From the NCBI GenBank assembly GCA_030041255.1, contig JASHOF010000044.1, positions 1 through 64,000 on the forward strand: a stretch of DNA of 64,000 bases, given 5' to 3'. The translations under genes and the position numbers were made by a program. A model generated the notes under the pieces. The model searched no databases, was not told the origin of the DNA, and saw only the letters and a list, made by a program, of their open reading frames with translations. Of the stretch, positions 42,629 to 53,687 are shown piece after piece. This DNA is from Acetobacteraceae bacterium. Lineage in GTDB: Bacteria; Pseudomonadota; Alphaproteobacteria; Acetobacterales; Acetobacteraceae. How positions within the stretch are numbered: the first letter of the stretch is position 1; every line of letters starts with the position of its first letter.

Positions 42629-43552
42629 TTACGGCCTGGCGAAAAATGCGGCCAGTTCCTCGAGGTTGAGAGCGCCGGCCGCAAAATCGTCCAGCACCTT
42701 CACGGCATCGTCGCGCGCCGCCGCGAGTCCCATTTTTTGCAACTGGCGGATGAGCCGCGTCCCCTGATGGATCAGCGGCTGATGGGCCGGGGCAAAAAAC
42801 TGGCGTACCAGCCCGCCAACGAGAACGAAGAGCGCCAGATGCAGGATCTCGTAGACGGAAGCGGGGGCCGGAGGTGCGGCGGCAATCATCCGGCTCACCG
42901 CATTGATCCCCGCTCCGGCGTGCCCGATGCTGCGGTCCAGAAGCTCGTGGCCGATTTCGTGAAACAGGGTCTCCACCAGATCGGCACCAGCAAATCGCGC
43001 GGTGTCCACCAGCGCCGGATGACTATGACCGCCTGCCTGGTCGTACGCGCCGCGCACCAGCACGACATCGACCGGCTGCTCGTCCTCGGGGATCATCAGC
43101 CCGCTCCGGATTCCGAGCAGAATGTCGTCCTTGACGGCGGGCAGCGTCGCGGCCAGCCAATCCTGCGTTTCCAGAAGCGCCGCCCGCTCGGCCGGCCAAT
43201 CGCCGCCGCGATAGGCGCCCTCCATCGCCGCCATGGCAGCAACCAGGCTTTCCGCCCATTCCCGCGCCCGGGCCGTCATCAGCTTCGGAATGGAATCGAA
43301 ATCGGCGGCATCGCGGGCTGCGTATTCCCCCCAGCGCAAGATCTCGATCGGGGAGCATCGGGCGGCAAATTCGCCCACGGCATCGCACCCGGCCGCCGCT
43401 CTGCCGCTCCGTACCCGGCGAATCTCCCGGCCCAGGTGCTGCAGCAGCGCCGGCGCGAAGCCGACGTGCAGCCTGAGCGCGATGCTTCGCCCCGCGGCCA
43501 GAGTGACGATGCGGCGATCCTCGGAGGCGGCGGCTTCGCTCTCCCCGCTCAC
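42629..43552 (-). CDS. HExxH-motif protein of the peptide operon (candidate peptide hydroxylase or protease)
   Basis: A 307-aa protein whose one clear motif is ETLFHEIGHELLD, with HEIGH at residues 198-202 and a possible third metal ligand in VYEILHLALF (Glu235). The region after it is hydrophobic (ILHLALFVLVGGLVRQFF). The motif is that of gluzincin proteases, but HExxH proteins that sit in RiPP operons also include a group of iron/2-oxoglutarate peptide beta-hydroxylases, so either activity is possible. GTG at 43552 overlaps the upstream stop (GTGA); no other start fits as well. Last gene of the operon. Confidence 0.65.
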   Translation of the reverse strand: MSGESEAAASEDRRIVTLAAGRSIALRLHVGFAPALLQHLGREIRRVRSGRAAAGCDAVGEFAARCSPIEILRWGEYAARDAADFDSIPKLMTARAREWAESLVAAMAAMEGAYRGGDWPAERAALLETQDWLAATLPAVKDDILLGIRSGLMIPEDEQPVDVVLVRGAYDQAGGHSHPALVDTARFAGADLVETLFHEIGHELLDRSIGHAGAGINAVSRMIAAAPPAPASVYEILHLALFVLVGGLVRQFFAPAHQPLIHQGTRLIRQLQKMGLAAARDDAVKVLDDFAAGALNLEELAAFFARP

Positions 43553-44451
43553 GTAGCCGTCCCGGCCTCCATGTCGGCCGGGACGAATCCGAGCACTCCC
43601 CGCGCGCCCAGTTCCGTGCACAGCCCCACGACCGGCTCGTAAAGCCCGGTGGCGCCGGGAAGCCCGAGCCAGTTGCCGAGATCGGTGAGCAGCCCGGCAA
43701 ATGTCCGCGTACCATCGATCATCAGCACTGCCGCTGCGCTCTCCCGGTTCAGGGAGAGTTCTCCCACGGCGCCGTTCTCCCCGCGATGCAGAAGAACAAG
43801 GCAGTTCTCGGACAGCTCGGGCCAGGGCTCACTCTCCACCTCGCGCAGGGCCTCGATATCGTAGCCGACCTCCACGACTGCGTGGTTCAAGTCCAGGATC
43901 GGCCGCAGGTCGTCGTGGCGGGCGAAGGCGGCCTGCAAGGCATCGGGCGAGCGGTTCACAGAAGATGGCCAGTTCTCCAGTTGCGGCCTGAGGCGCAGAT
44001 TCAACCGCTTCAGCTCGAAGTGCAACAGCCCGAGAGCGCGTTCGGGGACCGCCTGCCCCCGATCGTCATTGCCATCTTCTTTGCCATTCAGCAGAAAGTT
44101 TGCAAACCTGAGCGCCTCCGGATATTTGCGCGTGTCGAGCGCGATCGACTGGCGGTCCAACGCCTGTACCAGATCGAGAAGTGAAGACCCGAGAATTTTC
44201 GCGGTCAGCGGAAAGGCTTCCGCGATCGCCGCCATCCGGTTGCCGACCAGGCACTGGGCAAAAAGCTCGATCCGGTCCGCGTCCATGGCGCGCAGGCGCT
44301 CGCGCTCCCGGAGGCTCAGATCGAAATCACCGCCTTCCGCTGCCTCCGGGGCCAACACCCAGGCGCGGAACCGGCTGTCGGTCAGAAGCCGCGCATAGGA
44401 GGCCTGAAATCGCGCCTCGGCGCCGAGCCAGAAGGCGGTGTCAGACTGCAC
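43549..44451 (-). CDS. MNIO partner protein (DUF2063/HvfC-like helical N-terminal region)
   Basis: A 300-aa protein. GTG at 44451 starts 10 nt inside the end of the MNIO gene. The N-terminal 120 residues (RIELFAQCLVGNRMAAIAEA, FPLTAKILGSSLLDLVQALD) have the helical pattern of DUF2063-type proteins that accompany DUF692 enzymes and present the substrate peptide. The C-terminal half (ILDLNHAVVEVGYDIEALRE, SENCLVLLHRGENGAVGEL, SLNRESAAAVLMIDG, TRTFAGLLTDLGNWLG) looks like a winged-helix or RRE-type domain. It has no catalytic motif. Its position directly after the MNIO gene is the standard arrangement. Confidence 0.65.
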   Translation of the reverse strand: MQSDTAFWLGAEARFQASYARLLTDSRFRAWVLAPEAAEGGDFDLSLRERERLRAMDADRIELFAQCLVGNRMAAIAEAFPLTAKILGSSLLDLVQALDRQSIALDTRKYPEALRFANFLLNGKEDGNDDRGQAVPERALGLLHFELKRLNLRLRPQLENWPSSVNRSPDALQAAFARHDDLRPILDLNHAVVEVGYDIEALREVESEPWPELSENCLVLLHRGENGAVGELSLNRESAAAVLMIDGTRTFAGLLTDLGNWLGLPGATGLYEPVVGLCTELGARGVLGFVPADMEAGTAT

Positions 44452-45373
44452 GGGATGGTGGCCGGAGCCAGTCCGGGGCGGCGATCAGTTGGGGCGCAAA
44501 ATGCGGCGCCCATGCAGCGCAAAGAACTCCGCGAATCGCCGCCAGTTCCTCCAGCAGATCCTGGAAGGGCGGAAAATCCTGGTCACGCTCGATCATCACC
44601 GCCCGCAAGGCCGAAAGGCGCGGGGCGGCGGTGCGCAGCAGATCGAGCACCTCGCCGGGCACCGGCGCGTTGTGCGTGTCCAGCAGCACGCCATCGCTCG
44701 CGAGCCCGCCGGCGAGATGGATCTGGACCACGCGTTCCAGCGGCAGACGATCCACGTACGCCTGCGCGTCGAAACCCTGATTGACCGCGTTGTTATAGAC
44801 GTTCGTCAGATCGAGCAGGAGCCAGGCCCCTGATTGCTCGAGAATGGCCGCGATGAACTCTTCCTCGGCAAGCTCGTCGGGGCCGGGACGAAAGAGCACG
44901 GAGATGTTTTCGAGCAGGAACGGCACGGACAGAATGTCGACCGCGTGGCGGCATTTTGCGGCGACGAAGCCGACCATTTCGCGGCTCAGAGGAAGCGGCG
45001 TCAGATTGCCGATCGTCCGGCCCGGCACGCCGGTCATGCACAAATGATCACTCGCCCAGTGGGCGCCGGTCGCCGCTACCAGATCGCGCATCTGGCGGAC
45101 ATAGCCGGTGCGCAGCGGCTCGATGGTGCCGATAGAGAGGTCGAGCCCGTGCACCACGATGCCGAAGCGTGCCGCCAGCGTCTCCGCATCCCGCATCCGT
45201 TCGGGCGGCATGTCGATAAAATGTTCCAGCATCAGTTCGAGAAAGTCGACCTGGCCGGAATCGGCGAGCAAGTCTTCGCGAAATTCTCCGCGGTAACCGA
45301 GACCCACGCCAAGGAAGGGAAGGGTATCCGCGCGCGGGCGGGAATCGGCCAGTGTCTCCTCCGGGCCCAGCAT
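44441..45373 (-). CDS. DUF692/MNIO multinuclear iron oxidative enzyme
   Basis: A 310-aa TIM-barrel protein of the MNIO family, whose members (MbnB, TglH, ChrH and others) modify Cys or Asp residues of ribosomal peptides with two or three iron ions. Ligand motifs in order: VVHGLDLSIG (His75), WASDHLCMTG (Asp109, His110), FLLENISVL (Glu155), LLLDLTNVYNNAVNQG (Asp188, Asn194), VVQIHLAGG (His219), LDTHNAPVP (Asp232, His234) and VMIERDQDFPP (Glu262). The usual HLAGH is HLAGG here, so one motif His is lost. ATG at 45373 lies 7 nt after the small-peptide stop. Only the sequence family is certain; the modification it makes is not. Confidence 0.88.
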   Translation of the reverse strand: MLGPEETLADSRPRADTLPFLGVGLGYRGEFREDLLADSGQVDFLELMLEHFIDMPPERMRDAETLAARFGIVVHGLDLSIGTIEPLRTGYVRQMRDLVAATGAHWASDHLCMTGVPGRTIGNLTPLPLSREMVGFVAAKCRHAVDILSVPFLLENISVLFRPGPDELAEEEFIAAILEQSGAWLLLDLTNVYNNAVNQGFDAQAYVDRLPLERVVQIHLAGGLASDGVLLDTHNAPVPGEVLDLLRTAAPRLSALRAVMIERDQDFPPFQDLLEELAAIRGVLCAAWAPHFAPQLIAAPDWLRPPSRAV

Positions 45374-45380
45374 TGAAGCC

Positions 45381-45557
45381 TTACCCCTCCGGCGGCGGCT
45401 GAGGCGGCTTCGGGCGGGTCGCTGCGATCTGCATCCGCAACTCCGGTTCGGCGCGCAGAAGTTCCTGCAGCCGCGTCACCGCCACCACGCCCTCTACCCG
45501 CATGGTCGGTCCCGCGCCGGCTTTCTCCTCGCTCTCGCTCTTCGCCTTCCCACTCAT
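45381..45557 (-). CDS. 58-residue peptide with leader-like motif, no cysteine
   Basis: A 58-aa protein: charged N terminus (MSGKAKSESEEKAGAG), then PTMRVEGVVAVTRLQELL, then a Pro-rich end (KPPQPPPEG). ATG at 45557 overlaps the glycosyltransferase stop by 4 nt and the MNIO gene follows after 7 nt, so it is a true member of the operon. Residues 18-31 match the leader of the Cys-array peptide at 47778: TM-x-V-x-G, three alternating hydrophobic positions and a Leu in the same places. It could be a second precursor, a leader supplied in trans, or a chaperone for the enzyme. Too short for a family match by eye. Confidence 0.6.
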   Translation of the reverse strand: MSGKAKSESEEKAGAGPTMRVEGVVAVTRLQELLRAEPELRMQIAATRPKPPQPPPEG

Positions 45558-47590
45558 GAGACCTGCTCCGGCTGCTCTATTGTCTTCTCGGCCGGTCCAG
45601 TCCGGATGATCCCTTCCCAGAACAACCCTTCGACGATTCCTCGCAGATCGTCTTCTGCAATCTCCGCCGACCGCACGCCCAAGGCGTGCGCCAGCTCCCC
45701 GCGCAGGTCCGCAAAAGAAAGCACCCGTTCGCCAAGGATTGCCAGCAGCGCGGCCGTGCCGCGGCTCACCCGTTGCGGAAAAGATCCGCGGTGGAACAGC
45801 ACATGGAGCCCGCCGGCGAGGCGGAACCGCGCATGCCCGCAAGGCGGGATCTCTTCGCCCCGCGCGATGTGCTGTGCCAGCTCTTCCACATCGTAGGAAA
45901 AGAGCTCGACCGCACTTTCTCCGCGGAGGCCGAACTCCTGTGCCCGCGCATCCGGACCTTCGGGGTCGAACGCCAGGTGTGAGTCGGGGTGCTTTTGCTC
46001 CTCCTCGCGTTCACCGGTCCAGGCATGGACCAGCCGTTCGTAACGGCACATGTCCATGGCGGGGCCATCCTCCAGCAGCTCGAGCTTCACCTGCAGTTGC
46101 GAGCCCACGGCCACGGCAAACGCGCGCGGCGCCATCGCGCCGTCGCCGATCCCCGAACCCGCGAGCGCGGCGCGTGCCACCTGCTCGGCCTCCGTGCCGA
46201 GAAGCGCCGTGGTGTACGGATAGAGGCGCTGCACCACGGGCAGGGGGTCGAACCGGTCCTCGGCGTTCGCCTCGCGGTTCGGCCTCGGGCGCGGCGGCGG
46301 AGGCTCGCCCACCACCGCTCGCAACACCCGTTCGAGCCCTTCGACATAGGTGGCAACGTCCGGCATCTCGTCCGTCAATGCGTATCCTGCGGCGCCGATG
46401 CGGTGTGCCCGCTCCGGGTCGGAGAGCGCAAAGCGCAGCGCGCGAGCCAGTTCTCCGGCATCGCGCGGATCGGAAACCACGACCAGATTCTGGCGATGCC
46501 GCGCCCGGCCGCGGAACATCTGCTTGCGCAGCACTTCTTCGGACACTACGAGGCAGCAGCCGCAGCTCAGGACCTCGGACGGGATGCCCGGCGTATGGGC
46601 AGCGATCGCGAAATCGCGCTCGAGAAATGCCACCGCATCGCAGGCGCGGAGGAAGCCCGGCACACGCCAGTGTGGCACGAACGGATGCATGCGCACATAG
46701 CGCGCCAGAGCGAGTTCGACGATTTTCTGCGCGAAGGTTCCCTCCTGCCAGCCTCGCCCCAGCACCATGAGGTGGAACGGAAATCCCTCGTCGACCAGCG
46801 ACCGCATCGCGCGCAGCAGGTCGAAGGTACCTTTCTGCTCTCCGAGCTTGCCATAGAGCCCGAGCACCGGCAGGCCGGGCTCCAGCGGAGCCACCAAGGG
46901 CGCCAGATCATCCGACCCCGCCCAGCGCTCCGCTGCGCGCGCCAGCATGCGGTTCAGATCGGCAGGCGGCGCGGCGGGATGGAAGGCCGATCTGGGCAGA
47001 CCGAAACCGATCCCGGTGACAATCTGCGCATCGCCCACGCCGTGCCCGCGTACCACCCGCTGCGCCCGGCCGCCGGTGATCACGCGGTGTGCGCGACGGA
47101 GCACTTCCGCGTAGCAGGGGGCAAGATCGGGTACCTCCATGAGCCGGAACAAATCGCTGCCGGCGTGCTTGAACACGTAGGGCGTGGCGGTCCAGCCGCC
47201 GACGATGCTGGCGGCAACGCCGTAGGGCTCGAGATACTGCGCGAAGATGGCATCACAGCCGTCGCGCGCGATGGCCTCGAGCGCACGCGAGACCAGGCGG
47301 CTCGTCGTGGGATTGCCTTGCGGGATATAGTAGAGGGTCCGGCGATCCGGACGTTCCGTGCTGTCAACGACAACCTGCCCGCCGGTGGCCGGGAAGCGCA
47401 TGGCGTAGGGACCGTTCCCGGCGCGGTCTTCCGGGGCCAGATCGATGCGGAACATGTCTTCGACTTCGTCCGCGTTGGTGATGACGCGCACGAAATGGCC
47501 GCGCTCGGCAAGACCGCGCGCAGCCCAGTAGCATTGGGTGCTGACGCCGCCCTGGATGGGCGGATACTTGGTCAGGAAGCACAGTTTCAC
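45554..47590 (-). CDS. GT4-type glycosyltransferase with C-terminal RRE-like winged helix
   Basis: A 678-aa protein. Residues 1 to about 420 are a GT-B, family-4 glycosyltransferase: KYPPIQGGVSTQCYWAARGL at the N terminus, LGLYGKLGEQKGTFDLLRAM at the sugar-nucleotide domain and HTPGIPSEVLSCGCCLVV, the E-x7-E-like region. A Pro-rich linker (about 425-440) leads to a novel middle part and then residues 600-665 (VSRGTAALLAILGERVLSF, ADLRGELAHALGV, DDLRGIVEGLFWEGII), whose helix-helix-strand pattern resembles PqqD/RRE peptide-recognition domains. Start GTG at 47590 has a weak ribosome site. It stands between the Cys-array peptide and the MNIO genes. Confidence 0.8.
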   Translation of the reverse strand: MKLCFLTKYPPIQGGVSTQCYWAARGLAERGHFVRVITNADEVEDMFRIDLAPEDRAGNGPYAMRFPATGGQVVVDSTERPDRRTLYYIPQGNPTTSRLVSRALEAIARDGCDAIFAQYLEPYGVAASIVGGWTATPYVFKHAGSDLFRLMEVPDLAPCYAEVLRRAHRVITGGRAQRVVRGHGVGDAQIVTGIGFGLPRSAFHPAAPPADLNRMLARAAERWAGSDDLAPLVAPLEPGLPVLGLYGKLGEQKGTFDLLRAMRSLVDEGFPFHLMVLGRGWQEGTFAQKIVELALARYVRMHPFVPHWRVPGFLRACDAVAFLERDFAIAAHTPGIPSEVLSCGCCLVVSEEVLRKQMFRGRARHRQNLVVVSDPRDAGELARALRFALSDPERAHRIGAAGYALTDEMPDVATYVEGLERVLRAVVGEPPPPRPRPNREANAEDRFDPLPVVQRLYPYTTALLGTEAEQVARAALAGSGIGDGAMAPRAFAVAVGSQLQVKLELLEDGPAMDMCRYERLVHAWTGEREEEQKHPDSHLAFDPEGPDARAQEFGLRGESAVELFSYDVEELAQHIARGEEIPPCGHARFRLAGGLHVLFHRGSFPQRVSRGTAALLAILGERVLSFADLRGELAHALGVRSAEIAEDDLRGIVEGLFWEGIIRTGPAEKTIEQPEQVS

Positions 47591-47647
47591 GACTGTTACC
47601 GACTTTCATGGGTGAGGGATTTGCGCTCACTTCTGCCCTCACCCCTG

Positions 47648-47711
47648 CCCCTCTCCGGTCCCCGGCAAAGTCCAAGGACTTTGCCGGGAGCCCGGCCCAG
47701 AGGGAGAGGGG
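47648..47711. repeat. Nested palindrome between precursor gene and enzyme genes (CCCCTCTCC family, copy 2)
   Basis: Outer arms CCCCTCTCC (47648-47656) and GGAGAGGGG (47703-47711); inner perfect stem CCCGGCAAAGTCC (47661-47673), loop AA, GGACTTTGCCGGG (47676-47688). On the minus strand it follows the peptide gene and precedes the glycosyltransferase, so it could stabilise the peptide message or lower read-through. It has no T-tract. Confidence 0.75.
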
Positions 47712-47777
47712 AATTGCGTCGAGAGAGGCGGGTCGCCCGCCGCACAGCCGGCGGACGACCCCGTAACCTCAGCTTGG

Positions 47778-48029
47778 TTATTTGCTGCCGGCCGGCAGTT
47801 CCTTCCAGAGACGAACGTTATGCTCCTGCGCCCTGGCCACCAGGCAGACGATGCACACGAAGCAGACGAAGCAGACGACACAACTGACGGCCGGGATCTG
47901 CCCCGCCTTCACCGGCTTCATCGCCCTGAGTTCGAACTTCACCTGCTCGCCGCCGAGGACCTGGGCTGCCTTCAGCTTTTCGATACTGATATCACCGCGA
48001 ACCTGCATGGTTCCGGGACGTTCCGCCAT
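47778..48029 (-). CDS. Candidate RiPP precursor peptide with (Cys-x-x)5 array
   Basis: An 83-aa peptide. ATG at 48029 has a textbook ribosome site (AAGGAGG, 5 nt spacing), stronger than any other gene of the operon. Residues 1-48 would be the leader (GTMQVRGDISIEKLKAAQVL, GGEQVKFELRAMKPV). Residues 50-64 read CVVCFVCFVCIVCLV, with Cys at exactly 50, 53, 56, 59 and 62 and hydrophobic residues between. A hydrophilic tail of about 19 residues (RAQEHNVRLWKELPAGSK) follows. The array is encoded by a 9-nt repeat (TGY-NTC-GTC) on the minus strand. It is the first gene of the minus-strand unit. A membrane-anchored Cys peptide not modified by the operon enzymes remains an alternative. Confidence 0.75.
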   Translation of the reverse strand: MAERPGTMQVRGDISIEKLKAAQVLGGEQVKFELRAMKPVKAGQIPAVSCVVCFVCFVCIVCLVARAQEHNVRLWKELPAGSK

Positions 48030-48055
48030 CGGTGCCTCCTTGAGTCGCTATCAAA

Positions 48056-48289: not shown

Positions 48290-48754
48290 TCAGGAGGTGC
48301 CGCTGGCGAGCGTGGCCTTGAGGCCGGAGATGGTGAGCGTAAGCGCGCTCGGTCCGCTCGCCGCAACCGGCGCGGAAAGTCGCCAGGTTGCGTGATCGAT
48401 GTCGCGAAACAGGACCGCGATGCCGACGAACTGGGTGCCCTTCTGCAGCGTGCGGGTGATGGTCTTGCTTTGCGCCGGCGGCATGACGAACTGCTCGGAC
48501 GCCAGGAGGTCGGCGCCCAGCGTCTGCTGCTTCTGCTCGACCAGCGCGAAGAAATCGGCGCGATCGAAACTGCCGGTGGCGGAAAGCTGGAACAACTGGA
48601 ACGCGACCGGCGCGGGATGACCGGTCGGATCCGGGTTCTGATCCGCCCCGGCATGCACGGTGAGGGTCAGCACGGCGGGGGGAGGCGGACCGGCCGCGCA
48701 GCGTTCGAGCACGAATGCCGATGCGAGAGCAAAAAGGGCTCGGCGGCTGGTCAT
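48290..48754 (-). CDS. tssJ: Type VI secretion lipoprotein TssJ
   Basis: A 154-aa exported protein. The signal peptide RRALFALASAFVLERCAAG has a weak lipobox before Cys19. The mature part (LTVHAGADQNPDPTGHPAPV, AFQLFQLSATGSFDRADFFA) is the TssJ/VasD/SciN family, with the C-terminal FRDIDHATWRLSAPVAASG. TssJ anchors the T6SS membrane complex to the outer membrane. ATG overlaps the tagH stop by 4 nt. Neighbouring core genes (tssK, tssL, tssM, tssBC) are not in the window. Confidence 0.85.
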   Translation of the reverse strand: MTSRRALFALASAFVLERCAAGPPPPAVLTLTVHAGADQNPDPTGHPAPVAFQLFQLSATGSFDRADFFALVEQKQQTLGADLLASEQFVMPPAQSKTITRTLQKGTQFVGIAVLFRDIDHATWRLSAPVAASGPSALTLTISGLKATLASGTS

Positions 48755-50154
48755 GAGGGCTCCCTTCCCCGGGTGGCGATCTCAGCCAGTGCCTGTTCGT
48801 AGGCACGGGCGAAAGCCTTGCCGAAGACGCTGTCGAAATCATCGGCGAGTCCGGCAGAAACCTCGGCGTGCAGCTTCTCGAAGGCGTCCCAGGCGCGCGC
48901 CTTGCGGTTGGCGGCAAGCGCCATCAGCCCGCCGGCGCCGGAGGCACCGGAGAGCGTTGCTGGATCGAAGCGTTTGACCAGCGCGCGCACCGCCGCCTGC
49001 ATCGCCGAAGTGGTGGCCAGCTCGTGCTGGCGGATGTCCCTGAGCGCGTCGGCGACCGCCTCGTCCGGACCCATGTCGGTGCGGCGGCCGACGCCGATCA
49101 GCGCTGCCAGGGCATCTTCGTCGCCGGCCGAGAACTTGAGCGGGTTGTTGCCGTGGGCACGGATGATCGTCTGCTCGATCCGGAACTCGCCCTTGATGGC
49201 GGCGCGCGCGATCAGCGCCTGGCGGAGGCCGCTGACCAGGGCTCGGAAGGCCGCCCCGAGCGCGGTCATCGCCGCCGCGGGATCGGCGGGCCGGGAATCC
49301 GGCACGCCGGCGCCGGCCAGGAACGCTGCCAGCAGGCCGGAATCGGCGGCCGGAGCGGCGTCGCGCGGGGCTGCCGCAACGGCAGGGGAAGGAGAGGCCG
49401 GCGGGGCAGGAGCGACGGCGTGCACCGGGGCTGGAGCGGGCTCCATGGCAGGGGGCGGCACGGCGGCAGGGGGAGGCGCGGCGAGGGGAGGAGCGGCAGC
49501 CGGCACGGAAGCCGCCGGAGGCAAGAGGGACTCCTCGGAATCCCAATCGTCCGGCAGCAGTTCGCTGGTCGGCTGCGGCGGGCGGAAAGCGTCCTCGACC
49601 GACGGCCCATGGTCTGCCATCACCGGGCCGGCGAAGGGCTCCTCGGCAGGATCCGGGGCCAGCGGATCGAAATCCGGCGGCAGCGCGAAAGCGGGCCTTT
49701 GATCGGCCGTTGCAGCACCGCCGAACGGTTGCCCGCCGGCCGGACCAAGCACCGCCGCGAACGGGTCGTCGCCGAATGGATCGGCCGGCTGGGGCATGCG
49801 CCGTGCCGGCGCGATCGAGGGCGAGAACTGCTCCGCCTCTTCGGCAATCCGCGCCTCGATCTCGTACGGGCCGAGCCGGAGCCGATCCCCGTCTCTGAGT
49901 GTCCGCGGCGCACCCGGGCCGATCGGCTCCGCCTCGCGGTTGAGGAAGGTGCCGTTGGTCGAAAGATCGGCGAGCTGCCAGGTGCCGGCACGGAAGGCGA
50001 GCACGCAGTGGCGCTTCGAGAGATGCCGCTCCGGATCGGCCAGCACCCAGTCATTCTCGTTCCCACGGCCGATGCTGAACTCGCCGCCGCGAAGTTCGCG
50101 CGTTTCGGGCGCGACCTGATCCGGGCAGCGCAGCACGGAGAGTGTGAGCGTCAT
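48751..50154 (-). CDS. tagH: T6SS-associated FHA-domain protein TagH
   Basis: A 467-aa protein. An FHA domain spans residues about 18-90 (GGEFSIGRGNENDWVLADPE, LSKRHCVLAFRAGTWQLADL, STNGTFLN), a phospho-Thr binding module. Then a very Pro/Ala-rich linker (about 130-280), and the TagH C-terminal region (AFRALVSGLRQALIARAAIK, DEALAALIGVGRRTDMGPDE, FDSVFGKAFARAYEQALAEI). In other species FHA proteins control T6SS assembly through Thr phosphorylation. No kinase or phosphatase gene is nearby. Confidence 0.88.
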   Translation of the reverse strand: MTLTLSVLRCPDQVAPETRELRGGEFSIGRGNENDWVLADPERHLSKRHCVLAFRAGTWQLADLSTNGTFLNREAEPIGPGAPRTLRDGDRLRLGPYEIEARIAEEAEQFSPSIAPARRMPQPADPFGDDPFAAVLGPAGGQPFGGAATADQRPAFALPPDFDPLAPDPAEEPFAGPVMADHGPSVEDAFRPPQPTSELLPDDWDSEESLLPPAASVPAAAPPLAAPPPAAVPPPAMEPAPAPVHAVAPAPPASPSPAVAAAPRDAAPAADSGLLAAFLAGAGVPDSRPADPAAAMTALGAAFRALVSGLRQALIARAAIKGEFRIEQTIIRAHGNNPLKFSAGDEDALAALIGVGRRTDMGPDEAVADALRDIRQHELATTSAMQAAVRALVKRFDPATLSGASGAGGLMALAANRKARAWDAFEKLHAEVSAGLADDFDSVFGKAFARAYEQALAEIATRGREPS

Positions 50155-50158
50155 CGCG

Positions 50159-50449
50159 CTAGCCGATCAGCACCGTCGGAAGGCCGAGCACGATCACCCC
50201 GCCATGGGCGGTCGGATCCCCCATCCTGGCGGCCGGCATACCGCCGAGCAGCACCGTCGGCGACCCGGGAAGGATGGTGTCCGGCGGCCCGACGCAGGTG
50301 CAGAGCCCGCCCACGACCGCCGCCGGCATGCTGCCGATCAATACCGTCGGCACCCCGGGCGGCAGGATCGGCCCGCCGACATGCGGCACCAGCACGGTCA
50401 CCATCGGACAGGTGTGCAGGCAGCCGACAAAGGCCGCAGGCTGGCCCAT
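50159..50449 (-). CDS. PAAR-domain spike-tip protein
   Basis: A 96-aa protein made of PAAR-type repeats: GVPTVLIGSMPAAVVGG, GSPTVLLGGMPAARMGD and GLPTVLIG, with Cys and His residues for the tip metal site (CLHTCPMV, CTCVGPP, DPTAHGG). It caps the VgrG trimer of the T6SS spike. There is no effector extension. ATG at 50449 touches the stop of the upstream gene. Confidence 0.88.
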   Translation of the reverse strand: MGQPAAFVGCLHTCPMVTVLVPHVGGPILPPGVPTVLIGSMPAAVVGGLCTCVGPPDTILPGSPTVLLGGMPAARMGDPTAHGGVIVLGLPTVLIG

Positions 50450-51039
50450 CACTCCTCCTCGGGCGGCAGCCTTCCAGGCCCGCCCGCAGCGATGTTGTGG
50501 GCGCTGTCGAGAAAGCGGGCAAGCCTGTCCTTCTGTCGTTCGGGCTTCGCGCGCACCGCCGCCAGCGCCACCGCGCCGGCCACCGCGGTGCCGGTGAGAT
50601 GGTCGGCCGGCGGCACGGCAGGCTGGCCGAGCGGGGACATCGAATCCCCGCTCCAGAAAGCGGCCACCGCGGCCCACGCCTCCGGGCTGCCGAACCCGGC
50701 CTGCTGGGCAGCGGCAAAGGCGGCGCGGCGCGGCTCATCGGATTGGCGGCGCACCCACTGCTCGGCCTGCGCGACGGCGGTGCGGTCGGGTTCCGGAAGG
50801 TTGGCGGGCGCCGTGTGGTGCGCGCACATGCAGGCCCACCACGTGGCCTCCCGCTTCGGCAGCGCATGGGCCAGGAGGCGCGTCGCCTCGATGAGAAAGC
50901 CACGACCCTCCAGGCGCTCCAGCGCCTCGGAGGTCGCCGCACACCCTTCCAGCAAAGCACTCGCCTCGGCCGGAAGGTCGAGCCGTTTCCGCACCTCTGC
51001 GAGATCGCTATCCACCAGCTTGACCAGCGCTGCCCCCAT
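50449..51039 (-). CDS. Uncharacterised T6SS-cluster protein (DUF6931-like)
   Basis: A 196-aa protein rich in Ala, Arg and Leu: VKLVDSDLAEVRKRLDLPAE, KREATWWACMCAHHTAPANL and QAEQWVRRQSDEPRRAAFAA. All helical by composition, no signal peptide and no membrane segment. The ATWWAC motif is characteristic of a small family found between vgrG and PAAR genes in alphaproteobacterial T6SS islands. A chaperone-like or loading role is inferred only from position. Confidence 0.7.
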   Translation of the reverse strand: MGAALVKLVDSDLAEVRKRLDLPAEASALLEGCAATSEALERLEGRGFLIEATRLLAHALPKREATWWACMCAHHTAPANLPEPDRTAVAQAEQWVRRQSDEPRRAAFAAAQQAGFGSPEAWAAVAAFWSGDSMSPLGQPAVPPADHLTGTAVAGAVALAAVRAKPERQKDRLARFLDSAHNIAAGGPGRLPPEEE

Positions 51040-51052
51040 CTTCGGTCACGCG

Positions 51053-53014
51053 TCAGTTCACTTGGACAATTCCGCCCTTCAAAGTCAGCATCCCAGACCC
51101 GCTGACCTGCGCCATCGGCCCCTGGAGATTGAGCATCGCCGTGGCCGCAGCCTTGATCATCGTGCCGTTGATGGCGACGCCCGTGGGGTCGATCTTGATG
51201 CTGTTGTTGCCGACCGAAAGGGTGATGCTGGAGGTGTCCATCTTCACGCTGCTCACCGCTCCGACCGCCAGTTGGATGGCCTGCGCCCCGGAGACCTTCA
51301 CCGAGCCTGCCTGCGCATTCACGACTATGTTACCGCTGGACGAGGTGATCGTATAATCCTTTTGCGAAGTGTGGCTGACCGTGCCTTGGACGGAGAGGGT
51401 CCGGTTCCCGTCGATGGTGATCGATTCGTCCTTCTTTATCGTTACCGTCCGGTTGTTGCCCACCGAGAGCGACTGGTTGTTCTCGACCTCGGTCGTCAGG
51501 TCCTTCTCGGCATGCAGCAGCACGACCTCGCTGCCCGACGTGTCGTCGAATGACAACTCCGAGTAGTTGGAGGTGCCGCCACCGGCCGAAGAGCGGCTGC
51601 GGAAGCCGCTCTTGGTCTGCTGGTCGGGCAGCGCGAAGGGCGGCTTCTGCTGACCGTTGTAGAAGCAGCCGATCACCACCGGCTGGTCGGGGTCCCCGTA
51701 CATGAAGGCGACCGCGACCTCGCTGCCTTGGCGCGGCATGTGCTGCCAGCCCCAGCCATTGCCGCTCCAGGGCTGGATGACGCGCACCCAGATCGCGTTC
51801 GACCCGGTTTCGGACTGCCGGTGATCCCAGAAGAACTGCACCTTGATCCGGCCGATCGCCTCGCTGTCGATCTCGCCGGAGGCGGTGAGCACGACTGCCG
51901 AATAGACCCCGGTCATGCGCGGTCGCGGGGTGGCGAAGGGCTGCCGCCAGGTCGTCGCGTTGGGGAAGGCGGTGAAGCTGTTCCGGTAGCTGATGTCGCC
52001 GCCGCCGGCGAGCCAGGTCGGGTCGGAGAAATCGTGCACCACCCTCTGGATGACGAACTGCGCATTCGAATCGCCGGTCATCGGATCGGTCGCGAGCGTG
52101 AAGCGGCCACCCGGGAAGAAGCCCTCGTGCTGGCTCCCTCCCTCGTAGAGGGCCGCCGCCGCGTCGGCCGCTTCGGACTGGAACTTGGCGCGGTTGTTGA
52201 GGATATCGGTCTCGGCGGAACGCCCCGGCCACAGATAGACAGCCCGCTGCGAGGCACCGCTGGCCTTGAGCAGCGTGCTGCTGGTCCCGCTCGGCTGGTT
52301 CACGGAGACCGGATCGTAGTCGGAGAGGGTGACCGAGCCCCAGGCGGTTTCATTACATAGTCGGAACGCCGTCAGCACATCGTAGTTGCCGCCCGTTTCG
52401 GCGAACGTCAAGCTGCCATTGCTGATCGCCTGGAAGGCGCCGTTGTAATCCAGGATTACCAGCGTGTGCGCGCTCTCGGTATGCTCGAAATAATAATAGA
52501 GACCTTCCTCTTCCATCAGCCGGCTGACGAAAGCGAGATCGGTCTCGTTGTACTGGGTGGTGTACGGGCGCGTCGCCGGCGAACCCTGGAGCTTGGTCTC
52601 GTAGGTGATTCCCGTCTCACCGAAGATGGTCTGGAGAATGTCGGTCACGCTGGCATCCGGGAAGATCCGGCAATCGATGGTCTGGTTCAGGAACCAGAGC
52701 TTTGGCACCACCTCGAAACGATAGAACCCATAGCCACGCAGCGCGGTGCCGTGCGTGGTGAGGCGCCTGATCATGCCGTTGAAATAGCGCTGCGGGCCGC
52801 CCGGGCGCGCCACCGTCAGCGACAGCGGCTGGAACAGATAGCTGTCGGGCGAGAGCGGCGCGCCGGAGGCGTAGAAGTCGATGGTCAGAACAAAGGGCGT
52901 GCTGATCGCCTCTTCGGCGTGGAAGCCGACCGGGATGAATCCAGTGGCCGTGCCGCTGACGGCGATGCTGAGTGCACGCTCACCCGTCCCTCCTCCACCC
53001 GCGGAGTCGGACAT
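51053..53014 (-). CDS. vgrG: T6SS spike protein VgrG
   Basis: A 653-aa trimeric spike protein. N-terminal gp27-like part (FHAEEAISTPFVLTIDFYAS, RPYTTQYNETDLAFVSRLME, EEGLYYYFEHTESAHTLVIL), gp5-OB fold (GRIKVQFFWDHRQSETGSNA, WVRVIQPWSGNGWGWQHMPR, QGSEVAVAFMYGDPDQPVV), then beta-helix repeats (NNRTVTIKKDESITIDGNRT). It ends with the helix and has no effector domain. ATG at 53014 has AAGGAG 6 nt upstream; the frame is open to 53194 but that is antisense over the neighbour. It heads the small T6SS operon. Confidence 0.93.
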   Translation of the reverse strand: MSDSAGGGGTGERALSIAVSGTATGFIPVGFHAEEAISTPFVLTIDFYASGAPLSPDSYLFQPLSLTVARPGGPQRYFNGMIRRLTTHGTALRGYGFYRFEVVPKLWFLNQTIDCRIFPDASVTDILQTIFGETGITYETKLQGSPATRPYTTQYNETDLAFVSRLMEEEGLYYYFEHTESAHTLVILDYNGAFQAISNGSLTFAETGGNYDVLTAFRLCNETAWGSVTLSDYDPVSVNQPSGTSSTLLKASGASQRAVYLWPGRSAETDILNNRAKFQSEAADAAAALYEGGSQHEGFFPGGRFTLATDPMTGDSNAQFVIQRVVHDFSDPTWLAGGGDISYRNSFTAFPNATTWRQPFATPRPRMTGVYSAVVLTASGEIDSEAIGRIKVQFFWDHRQSETGSNAIWVRVIQPWSGNGWGWQHMPRQGSEVAVAFMYGDPDQPVVIGCFYNGQQKPPFALPDQQTKSGFRSRSSAGGGTSNYSELSFDDTSGSEVVLLHAEKDLTTEVENNQSLSVGNNRTVTIKKDESITIDGNRTLSVQGTVSHTSQKDYTITSSSGNIVVNAQAGSVKVSGAQAIQLAVGAVSSVKMDTSSITLSVGNNSIKIDPTGVAINGTMIKAAATAMLNLQGPMAQVSGSGMLTLKGGIVQVN

Positions 53015-53087
53015 CAAGGTCTCCTTCCGAACCGCAGCCCTTTTACCCGCCGGAACCGCAGCGGCAAACAAACTCTCCCGTGACCGC

Positions 53088-53687
53088 TCAGCCGGCCGTG
53101 CCCGGCCCGGCCGGCCCGTTAAGGGCAAGCCGGGCCTCGACCACGCCCGGCGCCCCCGGTTCTCGATGCAGTTCGAACCCGAGGTGGCTCGCAAATTTCA
53201 ACATCCCGGCGTTCTCGGCCAGCACCTCCCCGGTCATCCGTGCCAGCCCGCGCCTCCGCGCCCAGCCGATCAGCCGGTGCATCAAGAGGGTTCCCAGGCC
53301 CTTCCGTTGCATGTCCTCCTGCACCACGATCGCGAACTCGCCCTCGCGCCGCCCCGGCAGGCAGGCAAGGCGCACGACCCCAACCGTCTCCCCGCTCGCT
53401 TCCCGGATGGCGATGATCGCGGTCTCGGTTATGTGATCGACCGCAGTGAGGCGGGTGATCTCCTCCTCGGGCAACTCATGGACGGCCGTGAAAAAGCGAA
53501 ACCGCAGGTCCGCGGGCGAGAGGCGCCCGACGAACGCGCGATGCGCCCCGGCATCCGCAGGCCGGATCGGCCGGATTTGCAGCCACTCTCCACCGAGCCG
53601 GACCCGTTCGGTCTCGTCGGCCGGCGGGTCGAGAGTATGCCGATCAGGAGTATTCGGGGGCGAGGAGTTGGCCGCCGGCGACCCCAT
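53088..53687 (-). CDS. GNAT acetyltransferase of the protein-lysine (Pat) type
   Basis: A protein of about 199 aa. RPIRPADAGAHRAFVGRLSP, LRFRFFTAVHELPEEEITRL and the acetyl-CoA loop VVQEDMQRKGLGTLLMHRLI fit the stand-alone acetyltransferase domain related to the Pat/AcuA-type enzymes. The motif A arginine run (QRKGLG) is intact. Start ATG at 53687 (GAGGG upstream) is preferred over 53726. It lies between vgrG and gdhB on opposite strands and could act on a metabolic enzyme, but no target can be read. Confidence 0.82.
   Translation of the reverse strand: MGSPAANSSPPNTPDRHTLDPPADETERVRLGGEWLQIRPIRPADAGAHRAFVGRLSPADLRFRFFTAVHELPEEEITRLTAVDHITETAIIAIREASGETVGVVRLACLPGRREGEFAIVVQEDMQRKGLGTLLMHRLIGWARRRGLARMTGEVLAENAGMLKFASHLGFELHREPGAPGVVEARLALNGPAGPGTAG

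What the first reader, a model, noticed from the sequence alone, without database searches (positions are those of the whole stretch)
42629..48029. Operon with MNIO, RRE-bearing glycosyltransferase, HExxH enzyme and two small peptides: candidate new RiPP pathway
Six minus-strand genes with 4-nt overlaps or gaps under 10 nt (except after the first) encode: an 83-aa Cys-array peptide, a GT4 glycosyltransferase with a PqqD/RRE-like C-terminal domain, a 58-aa peptide, a DUF692/MNIO enzyme, its DUF2063-like partner, and an HExxH protein. Seen: gene order, motifs, overlaps. Known: MNIO enzymes modify Cys or Asp of peptides, and their partners present the substrate. Inference: the Cys array is oxidised or rearranged by MNIO and possibly glycosylated. 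I know of no described pathway with this set.
Basis: partly seen in the sequence, partly recalled or inferred. Interest (0 to 1): 0.92.

Follow-up and report, generated by a model that had tools for sequence, protein, structure and literature searches.

The report
Peptide-oxidising, sugar-adding RiPP operon
A six-gene bacterial operon very probably makes a small cysteine-rich peptide and then modifies it with an iron enzyme and a sugar-adding enzyme that carries its own peptide-gripping domain, a combination I found again in distant soil bacteria but in no paper of the searched library.

Summary
Six minus-strand genes (42629-48029) encode an 83-aa Cys-x-x-array peptide, a GT4 glycosyltransferase, a 58-aa peptide, an MNIO (PF05114), its partner and an HExxH protein. 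All six recur in a sister species, where the 83-aa peptide is the most conserved (82/83 identical, dN/dS 0.095).

The RiPP reading is supported from outside. The MNIO belongs to a fully supported clade of actinobacterial MNIOs, several of them in RiPP clusters, apart from the copper-bufferin MNIOs. Three of these (Asanoa ishikariensis and two others) have the order Cys-peptide, MNIO, partner, GT, followed by a LanB-type gene. The GT's C-terminus is homologous to the MNIO partner protein and scores as PqqD/RRE in the relatives. So the GT carries the same kind of peptide-presenting module as the MNIO partner.

Best reading: MNIO plus partner oxidises the Cys core of the 83-aa peptide, and the RRE-tethered GT adds a sugar to the same peptide. 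The HExxH protein is either an alpha-ketoglutarate hydroxylase or a protease; this is undecided. The 58-aa peptide is unexplained. No chemistry is shown. The parts are known; the MNIO plus RRE-GT4 pairing was not found described. New variant of a known kind.

The parts
47778..48029 (-). 83-aa peptide (pep83), proposed RiPP precursor: hydrophilic N-terminal half (leader), core with five Cys at 3-residue spacing
   Evidence: ORF and translation; 82/83 identical in sister species, dN/dS 0.095; coding bias; ribosome-binding site
47844..47882 (-). Cys-x-x array (Cys50, 53, 56, 59, 62), proposed site of MNIO modification; 9-bp tandem repeat in the DNA
   Evidence: Cys positions, hydropathy 3.08; tandem repeat 47844-47878
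48035..48041 (-). AAGGAGG ribosome-binding site of pep83
47730..47761 (-). strong G+C-rich hairpin just after pep83, possible expression step between precursor and enzymes; stem kept in the sister species by inspection
   Evidence: z-score -4.6 for the 187-nt gap; sister sequence
45554..47590 (-). GT4-type glycosyltransferase, 678 aa: GT domain about residues 1-425, C-terminal partner-like/RRE module about 449-660
   Evidence: Pfam Glycos_transf_1 48.6 bits; fold match to BshA/MshA, Foldseek E 5e-16; C-terminus homologous to MNIO partner; PqqD over cut-off in three relatives
45611..45841 (-). C-terminal PqqD/RRE-like domain of the glycosyltransferase
   Evidence: via homologues; three helices at pLDDT about 60-76 in the model
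45381..45557 (-). 58-aa peptide (pep58), no Cys; weak similarity to the pep83 leader region
   Evidence: kept in sister species with dN/dS 0.68; leader similarity p about 0.01, not convincing against window controls
44441..45373 (-). MNIO (DUF692) enzyme
   Evidence: PF05114 257 bits; PDB relatives 3BWW, TglH 8HCI, MbnB; clade with actinobacterial RiPP MNIOs 100/100
43549..44451 (-). MNIO partner protein (PME-type-2-like, RRE at C-terminus)
   Evidence: follows MNIO in all relatives with the set; HvfC 19.1 bits and Os1348/NHLP-like N-terminus 24.3 bits, both sub-cut-off; profile hits PqqD 5SXY at E 0.007
42629..43552 (-). HExxH protein: candidate alpha-ketoglutarate HExxH hydroxylase or metalloprotease
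   Evidence: motif in translation; no curated family; only the HExxH helix matches the TIGR04267 family

Best explanation
The operon is a RiPP biosynthetic gene cluster. pep83 is the precursor: its N-terminal half is the leader and its Cys-x-x array the core. The MNIO, fed by its partner protein, oxidises Cys residues of the core. The glycosyltransferase, which carries its own partner-like RRE at its C-terminus, is brought to the same or the oxidised peptide and adds a sugar. The HExxH protein does a further step, either alpha-ketoglutarate hydroxylation or leader/core cleavage. Shown by sequence: the gene set, its conservation, the MNIO family, the RRE-like C-terminus of the GT and the recurrence of the set. 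Inferred: pep83 as substrate, Cys as the MNIO target, sugar transfer to the peptide, the order of steps and the role of the HExxH protein.
For: Operon kept in the sister species, with pep83 as the most conserved member. The MNIO falls in a 100/100 clade with Micromonosporaceae MNIOs and apart from 56 other MNIOs, including the host's own second MNIO. Three of those clusters have Cys-peptide, MNIO, partner, GT in the same order, plus a LanB-type gene (TIGR03891 214 and 163 bits); an S9 peptidase is divergently placed in the two of them that I checked. Two other clade members sit beside TOMM leader-binding proteins. The GT C-terminus matches the partner protein (hhalign probability 97.7, E 1.4e-12) and is PqqD over the cut-off in three relatives (24.0, 25.3, 24.0 against 23.4); weak ApyI matches agree. 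The GT fold is GT4.
Against: No transporter or dedicated protease lies in the operon. The pep83 core is hydrophobic enough to be a membrane helix (mean hydropathy 3.08). It does not resemble the actinobacterial cores or leaders beyond being Cys-rich and following an N-terminal leader. The window's own GT does not reach any PqqD/RRE cut-off by itself, and it lacks the classical E-x7-E spacing of GT4 enzymes. A GT with the same C-terminal type occurs in another genome (L127) with no MNIO found beside it, so the GT is not bound to MNIO chemistry. HExxH and pep58 have no counterpart in the actinobacterial set.
Confidence: 0.62

Rival explanations
1. RiPP cluster, but the glycosyltransferase does not glycosylate the peptide: the GT-RRE fusion has been recruited as a scaffold, or glycosylates a small molecule or an intermediate made from the released product.
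For: GT4 enzymes mostly act on small acceptors or lipids, and the nearest solved folds are BshA and MshA, which glycosylate malate or inositol phosphate. The E-x7-E motif is absent. The pep83 core has a single Ser and no Thr.
Against: Fusion to a domain homologous to the MNIO partner and PqqD over the cut-off in relatives point to peptide as acceptor; the actinobacterial cores are rich in Ser/Thr.
Confidence: 0.2
2. pep83 is not a RiPP precursor but a small Cys-rich membrane protein; the enzymes act on pep58 or on a peptide encoded elsewhere.
For: Core hydropathy 3.08 over 19 residues, a strong hairpin separates pep83 from the enzyme genes, and pep58 lies inside the enzyme block.
Against: pep83 sits in the position of the Cys precursors of the relatives, ahead of the enzyme genes, and is the most conserved member. 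pep58 has no Cys and evolves faster (dN/dS 0.68). No second pep83-like gene was found in the host.
Confidence: 0.12
3. The operon is functionally part of the adjoining type VI secretion locus, for example making a peptide or modifying a T6SS component for delivery.
For: VgrG, DUF6931, PAAR, FHA and TssJ genes lie directly upstream on the same strand, and the whole block is collinear in the sister species.
Against: 260 bp and an own ribosome-binding site separate tssJ from pep83. The relatives outside the genus were not seen with T6SS genes in the stretches read, and no effector domain is present.
Confidence: 0.05

Closest known systems
Uncharacterised Micromonosporaceae clusters (Asanoa ishikariensis L075; L158; L159)
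   Same: Cys-rich peptide, MNIO of the same clade, partner, GT4 with PqqD/RRE C-terminus, in one row
   Different: They add a LanB-type gene and an S9 peptidase, have a different leader (DPFLLE...) and core, and lack the HExxH protein and pep58; the window's GT lies before, not after, the MNIO
pfl/pos clusters of Pseudomonas (PflC/PosC HExxH enzymes with an MNIO-nitroreductase, PMC12636437)
   Same: An MNIO and an HExxH protein act in one RiPP cluster
   Different: NHLP-type precursor, MNIO fused to nitroreductase, no glycosyltransferase, and the HExxH proteins belong to IPR026337, which the window protein does not reach
Bufferin/captophorin clusters (BufB/HvfB MNIO with a DUF2063-RRE partner; PMC12452194, PMC13097082)
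   Same: Cys-containing precursor, MNIO and RRE-bearing partner in a row
   Different: Sec signal peptide and EGKCG or Cys-Lys motifs there; the window MNIO falls below both curated cut-offs and outside their branch; no GT
Aminopyruvatide cluster (ApyH MNIO, ApyI partner)
   Same: PME-type-2 partner; GT and partner of the relatives weakly match the ApyI profile
   Different: MNIO scores 96 of 400 bits for ApyH; P450-containing pathway, no GT
Glycocins (from own knowledge)
   Same: A peptide glycosylated by a dedicated glycosyltransferase
   Different: Glycocin enzymes are GT2-type without MNIO or RRE fusion; here the GT is GT4-type with an RRE

Membership tests
MNIO (PF05114) | Curated family score and conserved His/Asp/Glu of the metal site | tested here: met
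   257 bits against cut-off 25; H75, D109, H110, E155, N156, D188, H219, D232, H234, E262 invariant in nine MNIOs; at two positions where most of them have His the window has Gln199 and Gly223
Bufferin/HvfB-type MNIO | NCBIfam equivalog cut-offs (BufB 310, HvfB 360 bits) | tested here: not met
   209.1 and 202.3 bits; outside that branch in the tree with 100/100 support
MNIO partner protein, PME type 1 | DUF2063 over Pfam cut-off | tested here: not met
   12.9 bits against 27.2
MNIO partner protein, PME type 2 | DUF2063-like helical part plus RRE, encoded after the MNIO, without a DUF2063 signature | tested here: inconclusive
   Position met; sub-cut-off HvfC and, in a relative, ApyI similarity; profile hits PqqD 5SXY at E 0.007; no structure obtained
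RRE-bearing enzyme (GT) | PqqD/RRE domain in the glycosyltransferase | tested here: met
   Met through three homologues over the PF05402 cut-off and profile match to the partner; the window's own sequence alone does not score
GT4 glycosyltransferase | Pfam GT4 domains and GT-B fold | tested here: met
   Glycos_transf_1 48.6 against 26.4 bits; Foldseek to BshA/MshA E below 1e-15
GT4 glycosyltransferase | E-x7-E motif | tested here: not met
   Conserved E324 and E339 are 15 apart in all six aligned GTs
alpha-ketoglutarate HExxH peptide hydroxylase (TIGR04267/IPR026337) | Curated profile score | tested here: not met
alpha-ketoglutarate HExxH peptide hydroxylase (TIGR04267/IPR026337) | Layout: HExxH, then about 36 residues, then a helix like xxHAxF | tested here: inconclusive
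   H238 lies 36 residues after H202 in YEILHLALFVL, 37 in family member L177; not tested against chance
RiPP | Genetically encoded precursor with leader and core next to leader-binding (RRE) enzymes | tested here: met
   pep83 plus two RRE-type proteins; same arrangement in three other genomes
RiPP | Post-translational modification of the core | not testable with these tools
   needs mass spectrometry

The most novel reading that the evidence does not exclude
An oxidise-then-glycosylate RiPP pathway: the MNIO (and perhaps the HExxH enzyme) creates the acceptor on a Cys-x-x array, and an RRE-fused GT4 adds a sugar to that new group. It would be a glycosylated MNIO product, not found described, shared by the window's proteobacterium and Actinomycetota.
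Probability: 0.3. Interest if true: 0.8.

Novelty: new variant of a known kind. Interest (0 to 1): 0.62.

Why it matters
MNIO enzymes are a fast-growing source of new peptide chemistry, but a held library of 5.39 million papers returned no MNIO cluster with a glycosyltransferase. A GT4 that carries the same kind of peptide-presenting module as an MNIO partner would be a new way to direct sugars onto ribosomal peptides. The array has five near-identical sites, so each step can be read by mass. The independent actinobacterial clusters give a second system to test.

Tried and rejected
AlphaFold2 of the HExxH protein with two sequences gave pLDDT 40 and was not used. Tests of the HExxH protein against TIGR04267 with curated and self-built profiles were inconclusive to negative. 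Weak HExxH hits in two family genomes (L006, L007) turned out to be chance matches in or against unrelated genes. A common leader of pep58 and pep83 was considered: p about 0.01 by shuffling, but unrelated window peptides score as high, so it is not claimed. A pep83 hit in G296 (E 0.001) lies in a 9-bp repeat between genes and was rejected. Plasmid searches with P0005 and P0006 found nothing; the one with the GT found only plain GT4 proteins in unrelated settings. L165's place next to the window MNIO in the tree is a flagged long-branch join and is not used.
Full report
Observation. The six minus-strand ORFs are present as described: pep83 47778-48029, GT 45554-47590, pep58 45381-45557, MNIO 44441-45373, partner 43549-44451, HExxH 42629-43552. 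From the GT to the HExxH gene they overlap or nearly touch (4-nt overlap, 7-nt gap, 11-nt overlap, 4-nt overlap). A 187-nt gap with a strong hairpin separates pep83 from the GT. pep83 has an AAGGAGG ribosome-binding site and a clear coding signature. In the sister species G069 the whole operon is collinear. There pep83 is the most conserved member: 82/83 residues, dN/dS 0.095, against 0.158 to 0.319 for the enzymes and 0.68 for pep58; counts for the short peptides are small.

Distribution. HExxH relatives were found in no other of 398 genomes of the phylum. Among 200 genomes of the order only G069 has it, two further weak hits being chance. The GT C-terminus was found in 2 of 299 genomes of the family, the host and G069. 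In another species of the genus (G313) pdxJ is followed by a different gene, so the operon and its T6SS neighbours are an accessory block at this site.

Independent relatives. A search of 201 genomes of its family then gave two more. All three have a small Cys-rich peptide with an N-terminal leader, then MNIO, partner and GT (MNIO 42-44% and GT 38-40% identical to the window's). A LanB-type gene follows (TIGR03891), and an S9 peptidase is encoded divergently in the two checked. The cores (for example TCNCYGSCQGGLCGSCC) differ from the window's Cys-x-x array. Two further clade members, L161 and L163, lie beside a TOMM leader-peptide-binding/SagB-like protein; L162 looks the same by sequence.

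MNIO. The protein passes PF05114 easily (257 bits) and keeps the conserved His/Asp/Glu set, but it misses the bufferin and HvfB equivalog cut-offs. In a tree of 66 MNIOs it lies with G069 and the Micromonosporaceae proteins in a 100/100 group, apart from 56 others that include the host's own second MNIO. It shares an HLAGG motif with the Asanoa protein and TglH, where the other aligned enzymes mostly have an AGH motif.

Glycosyltransferase. Residues 1-425 are a GT-B/GT4 enzyme. The conserved acidic pair is spaced differently from the usual E-x7-E. The C-terminal 250 residues align with the MNIO partner protein family by profile comparison (probability 97.7, E 1.4e-12), and in three relatives this part passes the Pfam cut-off for PqqD and weakly matches the ApyI partner profile. 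So the GT and the MNIO each have a leader-binding type module of common origin. RRE-fused glycosyltransferases of another class (PF00535) were noted in a 2025 RRE survey (PMC12710340); GT4 fusions are not mentioned in its main text. A GT of the same architecture without an MNIO occurs in G1292 (L127).

HExxH protein. It has no family match and no useful model. MNIO and HExxH enzymes do work together in the pfl/pos clusters (PMC12636437), and the layout resembles TIGR04267 members, but the profile tests were not met. I leave hydroxylase and protease open, with a mild preference for hydroxylase.

Mechanism. Most likely pep83 is bound through its N-terminal half by the partner and by the GT. The MNIO oxidises Cys in the array, the GT transfers a sugar to the peptide, and the HExxH protein makes a further oxidation or cleavage. 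Only the gene set, its conservation, its recurrence and the RRE homology are shown; the rest is inference.

Novelty. The kind (MNIO RiPP cluster) is known; the pairing with an RRE-fused GT4 was not found in the library. Most subscription papers are not in that library, so this is not proof of priority. New variant of a known kind.

Noticed in passing
48290-53194: Type VI secretion genes (TssJ, FHA, PAAR, DUF6931, VgrG) directly upstream on the same strand; collinear with the RiPP operon in the sister species, and both are absent next to pdxJ in G313.
   Followed up: partly
47591-47777: Gap after pep83 holds strong hairpins and a palindromic CCCCTCTCCCTCTGGG repeat; the sister species has a 43-nt insertion with a further copy of the repeat.
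   Followed up: no
L013 and L014 (host genome contigs C146 and C150): The host has two more MNIO genes outside the window; the one in L013 groups with the other MNIOs and not with this one.
   Followed up: partly
L127 7555-9594: GT4 with the same partner-like C-terminus but no MNIO, in a cluster with an ATP-grasp-like, a TauD-like, a sulfotransferase-like and another glycosyltransferase-like gene (read by eye).
   Followed up: no
L161, L162, L163: Same MNIO clade in Micromonosporaceae beside TOMM leader-peptide-binding/SagB-like proteins and ABC transporters, without the GT.
   Followed up: partly
43549-44451 (N-terminal residues 21-68 of the partner): Sub-cut-off similarity of the partner's N-terminus to the Os1348/NHLP leader-peptide family, as if the partner carried a leader-like domain.
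   Followed up: no
L199 1481-1633 (G296): A 9-bp tandem repeat between genes in a sister species reads as a V-S-F/V-S-S array; it resembles the DNA of the pep83 Cys array but is not a gene.
   Followed up: partly
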